From: Haliclystus octoradiatus
Taxonomy: Eukaryota; Cnidaria; Staurozoa; Stauromedusae; Haliclystidae
Direction: 5' to 3'
Length of the DNA stretch: 64,000 bases
Assembly: GCA_916610825.1 (NCBI GenBank)
Contig: OU744446.1
Span: 11,528,538 to 11,592,537, forward strand
This document shows, one piece after another, positions 44,901 to 53,900 of this stretch; positions within the stretch are counted from its first letter, which is position 1, and each line of letters opens with the position of its first letter. A program made the position numbers and the translations under genes. The notes under the pieces were generated by a model. That model worked only from the letters and a program-made list of their open reading frames with translations. It did no database searches and was not told the origin of the DNA.

Positions 44901-47900
44901 GTATCACAGCAAAATATAAGGAGTCTTCTAGTGATCAGTAGGGTTTCATATCATTCAAAAGTATAGCAGTAAGTATTTTTAATTGAAGGAAGTAAAAAAT
45001 CTAGATATAGACTTTATTATAATTTTTTATGCTATCCGTGGTGTATAATGCAAACACGGTAACAGTCATGATGTTAGCCAAGCTGTTAAAACTTTTTTGC
45101 AAATTGTTGGATTAAACCTTCATATTTAAACTATCAACAATCCTAAGTTTTTGCAATGTTATGTACATTTATATGTTAAGTCACAATCTAATGAAAATAA
45201 TCCTTGTGAATTGATAATAAGGTTTGAATTTGTCCATGTCTATTAATTTTAGGAACTTCAAGTTCTGGATGGCAGGAATGGCAACAATGTTCCACGACAT
45301 GCGGCCCTGGAAATCAAATACGTTCACGAACGTGCACAACAGCCGGCCCAGATTCGCTAGAATGCTTAGGATTATTAACTACAGAAACAAGGAACTGTGA
45401 TATCAAACCATGTGACTGCACTGGATCAAATTGTGCTGCAAGTTGGTCCCAATGGGCTACATCAATCCCTTGTAGCCTCACTTGTGGAGGAGGTCAAATA
45501 ACGTTATCAAGAGAATGCAGCGACGGTATTGTTGGTGATCCTGGTTGTGAAGGCAGCACAGTAAAAACTGAAGAATGCAACTCAAATATATGTCCAAGCT
45601 GGACTGAATGGGCAGTGTCAGTTTCTTGTAGCGTCACTTGTGGTGGTGGGAGTAGAAGACTGATCAGGGGATGTCAAAACGGAATTGTTAATGATATTGG
45701 CTGTACAGGTGATCAAGAAAAGACAGAAGTTTGCAACCAAAGCCCTTGTACTTTCTGGGCTGAATGGGCTATTACCATATCATGCACTGTTTCATGTGGC
45801 AGTGGCACTCAAATTTTAAACAGGAGATGTGAGAATGGACAAATATCTGATCCAGGATGTCCAAATATTGAATCAGAGTTTTTCAAATCTGAAACTTGTG
45901 ACCTAGGTGCTTGTATTGGATGGAGTCCGTGGGTCCCGTCACTCCCTTGTAGTTCGAGTTGTGGAGGAGGTCAAGTAACGTTATCAAGACAATGCCGCAA
46001 CGGTATTGTTGGTGATCCTGGTTGTGAAGGCAGCACAGTAAAAACTGAAGAATGCAACTCAAATATATGTCCAAGCTGGACTGAATGGGCAGTGTCAGTT
46101 TCTTGTAGCGTCACTTGTGGTGGTGGGAGTAGAAGACTGATCAGGGGATGTCAAAACGGAATTGTTAATGATATTGGCTGTACAGGTGATCAAGAAAAGA
46201 CAGAAGTTTGCAACCAAAGCCCTTGTACTTTCTGGGCTGAATGGGCTATTACCATATCATGCACTGTTTCATGTGGCAGTGGCACTCAAATTTTAAACAG
46301 GAGATGTGAGAATGGACAAATATCTGATCCAGGATGTCCAAATATTGAATCAGAGTTTTTCAAATCTGAAACTTGTGACCTAGGTGCTTGTATTGGATGG
46401 AGTCCGTGGGTCCCGTCACTCCCTTGTAGTTTGAGTTGTGGAGGAGGTCAAATAACGTCATCCAGAGAATGCCGCAACGGTATTGTTGGTGATCCTGGTT
46501 GTGAAGGCAGCACAGTAAAAACTGAAGAATGCAGCTCAAACATATGTCCAACCTGGACTGAATGGGCAGTGTCAGTTTCTTGTAGCGTCACTTGTGGTGG
46601 TGGGAGCAGAAGACTGATAAGGGGATGTCTAAATGGAAATGTTGGTGATATTGGTTGTGATGGTTTCACAGAAAAAACTGAAGAATGCAATGGAAATATA
46701 TGTCCAAGCTGGACTGAATGGGTAGTGTCAGTTTCTTGTAGCGTCACTTGTGGTGGTGGGAGTAGAAGACTGATCAGGGGATGTCAAAACGGAATTGTTA
46801 ATGATATTGGCTGTACAGGTGATCAAGAAAAGACAGAAGTTTGCAACCAAAGCCCTTGTACTTTCTGGGCTGAATGGGCTATTACCATATCATGCACTGC
46901 TTCATGTGGCAGTGGCACTCAAATTTTAAACAGGAGATGTGAGAATGGACAAATATCTGATCCAGGATGTCCAAATATTGAATCAGAGTTTTTCAAATCT
47001 GAAACTTGTGACCTAGGTGCTTGTATTGGATGGAGTCCGTGGGTCCCGTCACTCCCTTGTAGTTCGAGTTGTGGAGGAGGTCAAGTAACGTTATCAAGAC
47101 AATGCCGCAACGGTATTGTTGGTGATCCTGGTTGTGAAGGCAGCACAGTAAAAACTGAAGAATGCAACTCAAATATATGTCCAAGCTGGACTGAATGGGC
47201 AGTGTCAGTTTCTTGTAGCGTCACTTGTGGTGGTGGGAGTAGAAGACTGATCAGGGGATGTCAAAACGGAATTGTTAATGATATTGGCTGTACAGGTGAT
47301 CAAGAAAAGACAGAAGTTTGCAACCAAAGCCCTTGTACTTTCTGGGCTGAATGGGCTATTACCATATCATGCACTGTTTCATGTGGCAGTGGCACTCAAA
47401 TTTTAAACAGGAGATGTGAGAATGGACAAATATCTGATCCAGGATGTCCAAATATTGAATCAGAGTTTTTCAAATCTGAAACTTGTGACCTAGGTGCTTG
47501 TATTGGATGGAGTCCGTGGGTCCCGTCACTCCCTTGTAGTTTGAGTTGTGGAGGAGGTCAAATAACGTCATCCAGAGAATGCCGCAATGGTATTGTTGGT
47601 GATCCTGGTTGTGAAGGCAGCACAGTAAAAACTGAAGAATGCAGCTCAAATATATGTCCAACCTGGACTGAATGGGCAGTGTCAGTTTCTTGTAGCGTCA
47701 CTTGTGGTGGTGGGAGCAGAAGACTGATAAGGGGATGTCTAAATGGAAATGTTGGTGATATTGGTTGTGATGGTTTCACAGAAAAAACTGAAGAATGCAA
47801 TGGAAATATATGTCCAAGCTGGACTGAATGGGTAGTGTCAGTTTCTTGTAGCGTCACTTGTGGTGGTGGGAGTAGAAGACTGATCAGGGGATGTCAAAAC

Positions 47901-50900: not shown

Positions 50901-53900
50901 GGAAATGTTGGAGATATTGGTTGTAGTGGCGATTTTGTGAAGACTGGTAGTTGTAATCCAACCGCCTGTCCTAGCTGGACTGAATGGGCGGTTCTAGTTT
51001 CTTGTAGCGCTACTTGCGATGGTGGTACCAGGACACTGCTTAGGAGATGTCAGAACGGAACTGTAGGAGATATTGGTTGTAGTGGCGCTATAGTGAAGAC
51101 TGATAGTTGTAATCCAACCGCCTGCCCTAGCTGGACTGAATGGTCGGCGATAGGATCCTGTAGCGTTACTTGTGGTGATGGGAGCAGAACACTTAATAGA
51201 GAATGTCAGAATGGAAACGCTGATGATATTGGATGTAAAGGTGCTTCAGGAAAGACAGAAGTTTGCAACCAAGCTGCTTGTGCCTATTGGTCTCAATGGA
51301 CTGCTTCGACGTCATGTACTGTTTCATGTGGCGCAGGGATTCGAGTTTTGGGCAGGCAATGTGTGAATGGACAGATATCTGCTCCAGGTTGTGAATCAGG
51401 GTATCTCAAAACTGAAAACTGTAACCTAGGTTCTTGTAATGGGTGGAGTTCTTGGGTTCTTTCATCCTCATGCAGTTTGAGTTGTGGAGGAGGTCAAAGA
51501 ACGTTATCAAGACGATGTCTCACTGGTATTGTTGATGATCCTGTTTGTGAAGGCAGCACAGTAAAAACTGAAGAATGCAGCTCAAATATATGTCCAACCT
51601 GGACTGAATGGGCAGTGTCAGTTTCTTGTAGCGTCACTTGTGGTGGTGGGAGCAGAAGACTGATAAGGGGATGTCAAAATGGAAATGTTGGTGATATTGG
51701 CTGTACAGGTGCACCAGAAATGTCAGAAGTTTGTGGAAACCGTTCCTGTTTTTCTGGAGGTTAGTTAGATACTCGTTATTTTTGTATTAAAGCACGAGAA
51801 CCTATAGTGAAGGGGGGCTAGTGGATTTATATCCATATGCATTTATTGGTACTATTGCAAATCGCGATGTGGAAGGATGTTGCATGTTTTGTCGTAATCA
51901 AGTTCAACCAAAATCAACTTTAAATAATGAAATATTTAAATTTGTCTTGGGCGATACAATTTAATTTGTTTAATTGGTACAAATTTGAACTTGTTAAAAT
52001 TAACCAACGCATGAATGACAAATGCAATTTCAAATTGAATAATTTATTTTTTTGATTTTAGAACTTTATTACTGCTTCAAACAACTTTTAATGCAAAATT
52101 GAAACAATTTATTCCTTCTATAACTTCTGTAGATGTGTGTAAATGCTAATCAATTGTAACTTTTGGAGATCATTAGCCTCTCTTTTTACTTTTTATTCAT
52201 ATTTGTCCGCCTGAATTTAACCTGGTGCAGACTAAAACCTATCTTTGCGAAAGTGTAAACTACTTGAATTGAGAGCAACTTTCACTTCCACGACATAGCT
52301 TCCATCCAAGAAAAACTCAACATGTTGCTGTTCAAACCAATTCACAATATTTTGGATTGTCTAAAGTATATTTTTCAGAATTACATTTGGGATAGATGAA
52401 CAAAATTTTCGGCTATCATCCTTACTATAACTCGGCTGTAATCGTAAATAATGTGATTGTGCAAAATGACCGCTCCAAAGATGAATGGCAATAAAATCGT
52501 AACGTGTGAACAGGGTGTCATGTGGTACAAATCGACCTTTTGATATCATGGTCATAATTTTTTTCAGAAAATACCTGATAAACTCGTAAGCGAAATATGA
52601 ATTTCGTCATGGATAGAAAAAAGCAGCTTTTTTTACAATGGATTAGATTTATCAATGAAAATTGTACAAGAAAGTTTTGGTGGTTGTTGTTTTGATGTAC
52701 CAGGACATTTTGCTGTGTTTGTTTGGTTTTGTATAAATGCCTGTTTGACATTGTATTATGATATTTTATGTGAAATTTTTGCTTGATATTATCTTATGCT
52801 TCATTTATATAGATGCTTGTGGATTTGACGAGGGAATGTGTGACTGGACCAATGCTGGATCCTCAGATGGTGTAGCTGTATCAGCAAATGATAGTTCTTT
52901 GCCATCTACGAGACCATCAACTGATTGTGGCGGGGATGGTAAGACGAAATTTATTTTGACATTGATGGAATTTGTTGCCAATATAAAATTTAATTCATGT
53001 TGCAAAAATTGTATGCAAACAAAATCGTGGGTCACAATATTGGTGACAATAGATTATATAACTTCATCATGTTAATCACATGGAACATTTAGTTACAAAA
53101 TTAGATACCAGTTTCCCAGGGTGGTTTAACAACTTTACAATCAAATGAGGAAAGAAAATTAATTAAAACAACAACAAAAATTTGTTGGATGTTTAGAAAA
53201 TTATTTATTTGATGTTATTAAGTACTATATTATATGGTTGACAATGCAGATGCGGGTCAAAATGCCTGCCAGTCGTTTTGATTTAATGATTAAATCTTTA
53301 TCGGATCAAGTAAAAAAGTTAATTTTCTTATTAAAATATTTGAGTTTATTCAGAAAAACCCAATAAGCCTTTTTGCAAATATTATTTGTGACAGGAGAGG
53401 GAAGTACTGCAAATCTACAATATGTGTAGTATTATAGTTAGTCCTATAGAAAAAATCAACCAATAATGCAGAGACACATTGACAATCAGGTATTTTTTAT
53501 AAATAGTCTGGAATTATTCAGTTTCACAATGATATTCTGAACAAATTAGAGTCAAAACATATTTTAAAATGTGCACCTGAACTAATCTCTTTTCATCTGT
53601 ATCTGAGTTTTACCAATAAGAACCTGGAACTAGTTCCGGTGCACATTTAAAAATATTTTTTGACTCTAATTTGTTCAGATTATCATTGTGAATAATTCTA
53701 GACTATTTATAATAACTATCTGATTATCAATGTTTCTCTGTTATTGGTTGATTTTTGTTTTGTTTTTCCATGGGACTATACTACTACACATATTCTTAGA
53801 AACTTTTATATTCAGTGTACCACATTTTTAAATTTTAATTGAAATTCAAACAATTGGTACAAAATCAATTAGAATTTAACAAGAGTTGGAAAGCTGAGAG

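What the first reader, a model, noticed from the sequence alone, without database searches (positions are those of the whole stretch)
45253..51759. A 6.5-kb exon of about 41 TSP1 repeats with nearly identical 1,110-bp higher-order units
Most TSP1 tandems are one repeat per exon. Here about 41 repeats lie in one intronless exon, and classes A to E recur in order: A-B-C-A-B-C-D three times at exactly 1,110 bp, then 945-bp units. Units 1 and 2 show only a few base differences, including at synonymous positions, which points to recent unequal crossing-over or gene conversion. Unit lengths keep the frame, so copy number can vary between alleles. Fast homogenising arrays in secreted proteases are what one would expect for gamete or self/non-self recognition, but that role is inference.
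Basis: partly seen in the sequence, partly recalled or inferred. Interest (0 to 1): 0.85.

Follow-up and report, generated by a model that had tools for sequence, protein, structure and literature searches.

The report
Jellyfish protease with homogenised 41-module exon
In a genome that matches the stalked jellyfish Haliclystus octoradiatus, one exon of a secreted-protease gene holds a chain of 41 very similar protein modules that appears to have grown from within by repeated unequal DNA exchange, and related genes did the same separately; the evolutionary process is clear, the biological role is still a guess.

Summary
Exon 45253-51759 is one open frame (2,169 codons) with 41 TSP1 repeats in a higher-order pattern: about 2.9 periods of 1,110 bp, then 945-bp blocks; 13 of 13 high-identity shifts are multiples of 3. 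It fits as exon 17 of a 20-exon gene model (17159-58789): signal-like start, intact astacin motifs, TSP1 and MAM modules, the 41-repeat exon, a last MAM. Contig lengths and a COX1 gene point to Haliclystus octoradiatus jrHalOcto1.1, a cnidarian. A neighbouring gene has the same layout with its own 34-repeat exon. In a tree of 166 repeats, 40 of 41 window repeats form one clade; two sister genes elsewhere share their first repeat more than their interiors. So arrays grow and homogenise gene by gene inside one exon, though at least two long one-exon arrays do not. Unequal exchange is well supported. Gamete or self/non-self recognition is untested here, and spider-silk genes show the same signature. 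Prior art: Hydra has a 48-TSR protein in mucous gland cells and TSR-MAM zinc proteases in the mouth region. New variant of a known kind.

The parts
17159..58789 (+). whole gene model: 20 exons, 3,117 aa, 19 GT-AG introns; boundaries chosen by eye, no transcript evidence
   Evidence: one reading frame, single stop at the end, phases consistent
17159..17246 (+). exon 1: start codon and signal-peptide-like segment (MRLVTLFYVFSLLLIHS...)
   Evidence: best 19-residue hydropathy window of the protein is at residues 3-21 (1.49); no signal-peptide program was available
20841..25871 (+). exons 4-7: end of propeptide and astacin domain with HEIMHALGFWHE and SVMHY
   Evidence: Astacin PF01400 residues 103-284, E 1.3e-58; motifs
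26966..27121 (+). exon 8: degenerate TSP1-like module (by eye; Pfam gives nothing)
34703..34882 (+). exon 9: one TSP1 in a 180-bp phase 1-1 exon
35301..37896 (+). exons 10-12: first MAM domain
38193..38372 (+). exon 13: one TSP1 in a 180-bp phase 1-1 exon
42364..44890 (+). exons 14-16: second MAM domain
45253..51759 (+). exon 17: 6,507-bp mega-exon with 41 TSP1 repeats, phase 1-1
45270..45443 (+). repeat 1: diverged 5' edge repeat (eight cysteines), outside the clade of the other 40
45600..50507 (+). repeats 3-33: core; nearest other repeat 89-100% identical in DNA
45921..47030 (+). repeats 5-11: 1,110-bp unit E-C-D-E-F-C-D, first full copy
47031..48140 (+). repeats 12-18: 1,110-bp unit, second full copy, 3 differences from the first
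48618..49562 (+). repeats 22-27: 945-bp block E-F-G-F-C-D
49563..50507 (+). repeats 28-33: 945-bp block E-F-G-G-C-D
51132..51758 (+). repeats 38-41: diverged 3' edge repeats (nearest other repeat 73-87% in DNA)
52813..58789 (+). exons 18-20: third MAM domain and stop codon

Best explanation
Shown: the exon is the third TSP1 position of a cnidarian astacin-TSP1-MAM gene, and its interior derives from one founder repeat and is homogenised within the gene. Inferred from that: in-register unequal crossing-over and conversion between repeats keeps adding, losing and copying blocks of whole repeats, so length changes without breaking the frame, while the ends escape and diverge. Inferred, weaker: the product is a secreted, active protease carrying a long, acidic, probably C-mannosylated and O-fucosylated chain of TSR modules that works as a multivalent spacer or anchor holding the enzyme in an extracellular secretion or matrix (most likely gland-cell mucus of the feeding or attachment epithelium), with relaxed demands on exact length.
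For: One clade of 40 of 41 repeats (support 0.963), similar single-array clades 15/16, 10/11, 8/9 and 20/34 in four other exons. Nearest neighbour in the same array 40/41, 30/34, 15/16, 10/11, 9/9. First repeats of two sister genes on different chromosomes 67% identical to each other and 43% and 42% on average to their own interiors; their astacin exons are sisters (96/89). Same core-young, ends-old profile in the neighbouring 34-repeat exon. Chimaeric repeats 25 and 32 (no null model). Same domain layout in the neighbour. Intact zinc and Met-turn motifs. Model of repeats 8-11: mean pLDDT 84, pTM 0.40, best Foldseek hits properdin and thrombospondin-1 TSRs. 41 of 41 glycosylation-type motifs, net charge -68, the D repeats -4 in 8 of 8. 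Similar Hydra and Exaiptasia genes are expressed in gland-like mouth cells and pedal disc (passages).
Against: No expression, protein or haplotype data for this gene. Two long one-exon arrays are not homogenised (C1:19.715 Mb: largest clade 3 of 14, though 10/14 nearest neighbours are in the same array; C1:22.473 Mb: 0/9), so one exon alone does not force homogenisation. The repeat profile used was built from the window repeats. Glycosylation and rod length are from motif and general TSR knowledge, not tested. Low pTM means inter-module geometry is not predicted. The anchor role is by analogy.
Confidence: 0.6

Rival explanations
1. Near-neutral passenger: the array expands and homogenises because tandem coding repeats in register do so, and the protein merely tolerates it; length has no specific function.
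For: All high-identity shifts keep the frame simply because repeats are 156 or 165 bp; recent within-class dN/dS about 1.0 in classes E, D and G; several genes of the family carry 11, 16, 34 and 41 repeats.
Against: Older, between-class comparisons show purifying selection (0.20-0.36; median 0.30 over 363 pairs); 40 of 41 repeats keep six cysteines.
Confidence: 0.22
2. Gamete or self/non-self recognition protein whose array drifts or is selected to diversify, as in abalone VERL or the role proposed by the first reader.
For: Ascidian Tast proteases combine astacin with TSP1 and are found on sperm; VERL has 23 repeated ZP-N domains and is tied to species-specific fertilisation (passages).
Against: Tasts have two to six TSP1, several have an N-terminal transmembrane segment, none in the passages seen has MAM, and they are tunicate; no gonad data here; spider silk shows the same homogenisation without recognition; no clear excess of amino-acid change.
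Confidence: 0.1
3. Structural glue or capsule protein: secreted from pedal-disc adhesive cells or packed in cnidocysts, with the array as a fibrous sticky part.
For: An Exaiptasia zincin + concanavalin-like + TSP1 protein is up in the pedal disc, and TSR repeat proteins are in the Nematostella cnidocyst matrisome (passages). Stalked jellyfish live attached (recalled).
Against: No expression data for this gene; the intact astacin motifs suggest catalysis is used.
Confidence: 0.2
4. Assembly artefact: collapsed or falsely duplicated repeats.
For: Tandem near-identical units; a 200-N gap lies 6.4 kb upstream.
Against: The published assembly used 68-fold PacBio HiFi with QV 56.6 (passages), at which 6,507 bp would carry about 0.014 errors, fewer than the 3-4 differences seen between units; the best other genomic match is 50% identical protein, so no haplotig copy; four other exons show the same process.
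Confidence: 0.04

Closest known systems
Hydra TSR-domain proteins of the hypostome, incl. HyTSR1 (48 TSRs) and the zinc-metalloprotease + TSR group with MAM and WSC (PMC4820225; passages)
   Same: Cnidarian, medusozoan; very long TSR chains exist; TSR + zinc metalloprotease + MAM combination exists
   Different: HyTSR1 has TSRs only; the Hydra protease group carries WSC, which Pfam does not find here; I saw no statement there on exon structure or homogenisation ('exon' 0 occurrences)
Anthozoan TSR proteins with astacin (PMC5446238; passages)
   Same: Astacin plus TSR in cnidarians
   Different: No array of this size or exon analysis in the passages seen ('exon' and 'tandem' 0 occurrences)
Ascidian Tast sperm proteases (PMC6353882 part 1 of 4; PMC11673157 passages)
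   Same: Astacin followed by TSP1 repeats
   Different: One to six TSP1 in the tables seen, sperm type II membrane topology in several, no MAM, tunicate
Spider AcSp1 aciniform spidroin (PMC3933166; passages)
   Same: Within-gene homogenisation at DNA level, end repeats less similar, repeats cluster by lineage
   Different: Silk repeats of about 600 bp, far more uniform (98.7% on average); no protease
Abalone VERL (PMC8830517; passages)
   Same: Large domain-repeat expansion in a secreted or surface protein with concerted evolution
   Different: ZP-N domains in an egg coat protein
Meprins (PMC9848320 and PMC4545420; passages and abstract)
   Same: Astacin with MAM
   Different: MATH/TRAF and transmembrane segment lacking here; TSP1 arrays lacking there

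Membership tests
Thrombospondin type 1 repeats (PF00090) | profile match, W and six-cysteine pattern, fold | tested here: met
   model and Foldseek
Astacin, peptidase M12A | full-length domain with HExxHxxGxxHE and Met-turn | tested here: met
Astacin, peptidase M12A | proteolytic activity | not testable with these tools
   none
Meprins | MAM plus MATH plus transmembrane segment | tested here: not met
   MAM found, MATH not; no hydropathy window above 1.49 and the best is N-terminal
Ascidian Tast | astacin plus TSP1 | tested here: met
Ascidian Tast | N-terminal type II transmembrane segment without signal peptide (sperm Tasts) | tested here: inconclusive
   only about two residues precede the hydrophobic stretch, which looks like a signal peptide; no predictor run
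Ascidian Tast | tunicate orthology | tested here: not met
   cnidarian genome
Hydra zinc-metalloprotease/TSR/MAM group | metalloprotease, TSR and MAM in one protein | tested here: met
Hydra zinc-metalloprotease/TSR/MAM group | WSC domain | tested here: not met
Hydra zinc-metalloprotease/TSR/MAM group | expression in hypostome endoderm | not testable with these tools
   none
Genes with intragenic concerted evolution (AcSp1 type) | DNA-level homogeneity including synonymous sites | tested here: met
Genes with intragenic concerted evolution (AcSp1 type) | repeats group by gene or lineage, ends less similar | tested here: met
   (paralogues, not species)
Genes with intragenic concerted evolution (AcSp1 type) | repeat-number variation among individuals | not testable with these tools
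   no second haplotype or reads

The most novel reading that the evidence does not exclude
The family is a set of length- and sequence-hypervariable secreted recognition proteases: in each gene one TSP1 exon is an engine that rewrites itself by exchange, giving individuals or populations different multivalent arrays used in gamete or self/non-self recognition.
Probability: 0.08. Interest if true: 0.8.

Novelty: new variant of a known kind. Interest (0 to 1): 0.5.

Why it matters
Domain repeats are usually thought to multiply by exon duplication. Here one gene family offers single-exon arrays of 11, 16, 34 and 41 folded disulphide domains at matching positions in related genes, some homogenised and some not, next to ordinary one-repeat exons in the same gene. 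That makes it possible to measure how fast folded-domain arrays turn over and whether length matters, in a long-read genome with a deposited second haplotype. It also warns against reading homogenisation as evidence for recognition.

Tried and rejected
That AGR positions are arginine in other animals' COX1 is recalled. The tunicate-type cellulose-synthase marker search (GH6) gave 0 hits but no control rang, so it says nothing.

Haplotig or genome duplicate: next-best matches to the exon protein are 44-50% identical.

Array genes as one astacin clade: a 32-row tree of about 70 residues needs 4 label changes (shuffled mean 6.5) and does not settle it; only 28 of the 30 fetched top astacin loci plus four others were used, L048 and L050 gave no motif match, L065, L066 and a second window copy were dropped as duplicates, and the genome has at least 151 astacin exon matches. 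The window gene and its neighbour are not shown to be sisters in it, so their kinship rests on layout and position.

More TSP1 exons hidden in the window: tblastn of the gene model found none at E 0.01 in the six introns or flanks given.

Positive selection: not shown; the lowest dS bin (41 pairs) has mean dN 0.019 above mean dS 0.006, which binning by dS favours.

Literature for one-exon or concertedly evolving TSP1 arrays: the listings showed nothing on point; the library is open-access only, so this is no proof of absence. SCO-spondin passages gave no TSR number.

One search assumed the wrong orientation for minus-strand loci and its minus-strand results are void; redone.
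Full report
What is there. The window lies on contig C1 at 11,528,538-11,592,537 of a 261.9-Mb assembly of 33 contigs. Three contig lengths (39,977,743; 28,991,210; 20,733,292) equal the longest scaffold, N50 and N90 that the Haliclystus octoradiatus genome note gives, with 33 scaffolds (PMC9975415, passages); the total differs by about 37 kb from the 261,898,343 bp printed there. A COX1 gene on C33 reads best with AGR as arginine and TGA as tryptophan, as in cnidarians (the comparison is recalled). 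The organism is therefore very probably this stalked jellyfish.

The exon. 45253-51759 is open throughout, with 41 TSP1 repeats of mostly 52 or 55 residues. By DNA similarity the core falls into classes E, C, D, F and G; each block starts with E and ends with D: E-C-D, E-F-C-D, E-F-G-F-C-D, E-F-G-G-C-D. The 1,110-bp shift is near-identical for 2,107 bp; two full units differ at 3 of 1,110 bases. Repeats 1 and 38-41, and to a lesser degree 2, are diverged. Repeats 25 and 32 look chimaeric: 10 differences from the best single parent fall to 3 with two parents, and 17 to 6; of nine repeats scanned others gained little (for example 38: 21 to 21), and two parents always fit at least as well as one.

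The gene. Exons placed by eye join into 3,117 residues with one stop, at the end, and 19 GT-AG introns. Order: signal-like start, propeptide, astacin, a degenerate TSP1-like exon, TSP1, MAM, TSP1, MAM, 41 TSP1, MAM. Exons 9 and 13 carry one TSP1 each and are phase 1-1, as is the mega-exon, so the layout suggests a TSP1-MAM pair in which one TSP1 exon grew internally. The zinc motif HEIMHALGFWHE and SVMHY are intact.

The family. A search of the genome with the exon protein gave 28 matches, including open frames of 1,834, 908, 728, 627, 548, 477, 402, 377 and 368 aa. The 1,834-aa frame lies about 32 kb beyond the end of the window gene (11,619,109-11,624,610, minus strand), preceded by astacin, TSP1, MAM, TSP1, MAM and followed by a MAM-like stretch just under the Pfam cut-off (26.0 vs 26.4 bits). 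Its 34 repeats show the same profile: units 11-29 have near-copies at 94-100%, the ends 45-62%. High-identity shifts are multiples of 3 in this exon (19 of 19), in C4:29.838 Mb (14 of 14), C1:19.747 Mb (7 of 7) and C1:35.07 Mb (5 of 5); C1:19.715 Mb has none.

Independent growth. In a FastTree tree of 166 repeats from 14 frames the largest single-array clades are 40 of 41 (window), 20 of 34, 15 of 16, 10 of 11 and 8 of 9, but 3 of 14 and 2 of 9 in two other long exons and none in four shorter ones with 4 to 6 repeats. The exons at C4:29.838 and C1:19.747 belong to genes whose astacin exons are sisters (96/89). Their first repeats are 67% identical, against 43% and 42% to their own interiors; interiors are 60% identical between genes and 90% and 85% within. 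So the first repeat is old and shared, while the rest was rewritten in each gene. This is the strongest evidence for concerted evolution within genes.

Selection. Median dN/dS is 0.30 over 363 repeat pairs with dS above 0.02; between class consensuses 0.20-0.36 where defined; within classes 1.03, 0.44, 1.02, 0.42 and 1.01 for E, C, D, F and G. Old changes were constrained; recent ones are few and close to neutral. Exchange between repeats breaks the assumptions of such estimates, so they are only a guide.

How it may work. Motifs for C-mannosylation and O-fucosylation occur in every repeat (41 and 41; motif meanings recalled). Repeats 8-11 are predicted as TSR modules (mean pLDDT 84.1, pTM 0.40), closest to properdin and thrombospondin-1. 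The array is acidic (-68), with the D repeats at -4 each at the end of each block. A long multivalent chain attached to a secreted protease is the natural reading; where it acts is unknown. In Hydra, TSR proteins including a 48-TSR one are made in mucous gland cells of the hypostome and two metalloprotease-MAM members in non-epithelial endoderm there; a similar Exaiptasia gene is up in the pedal disc. These make gland secretion the leading guess and leave gametes as a minor one.

Verdict. Observation confirmed with small corrections; mechanism of growth well supported; recognition role unsupported. It is a new variant of a known kind: long TSR chains, astacin-TSR-MAM proteins and intragenic homogenisation are each known; I found no report of their combination in one exon in the searches made, which cover open-access papers only.

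Noticed in passing
G000 C1:11614088-11616778 and 11619067-11619404: Beside the neighbouring gene a 1,179-bp stretch is duplicated at 99.8% around a 338-bp, 99.7% copy of the 3' end of its array exon: recent local duplication.
   Followed up: partly
L018 (C8:10322095-10325316): One open frame of 1,074 aa reads, by eye, as leucine-rich repeats, several TSP1 repeats and a trypsin-like protease; no family search run on it.
   Followed up: no
G000 C7:8.90-8.92 Mb and 8.965-8.983 Mb: Two runs of single-TSP1 exons about 66 kb apart with many equal scores: probably a recent tandem gene duplication or an uncollapsed haplotype.
   Followed up: no
window 38637-42354: A 200-N gap followed by a 3.5-kb TTA repeat inside an intron of the gene.
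   Followed up: no
window 33586-34020: 435-bp ATTC repeat in an intron of the gene.
   Followed up: no
window 61386-63662, minus strand: Retroelement pol remains: reverse transcriptase, RNase H and integrase domains.
   Followed up: no
window 12657-13316 and 14399-15127: Two open frames with ankyrin repeats side by side.
   Followed up: no
L019 (C4:30339251-30341401): TSP1 repeats followed in one frame by a long lysine-rich tandem repeat.
   Followed up: no
G000 C4:10384577, 10397700, 10408547: Three astacin exon matches with the same score within 24 kb.
   Followed up: no
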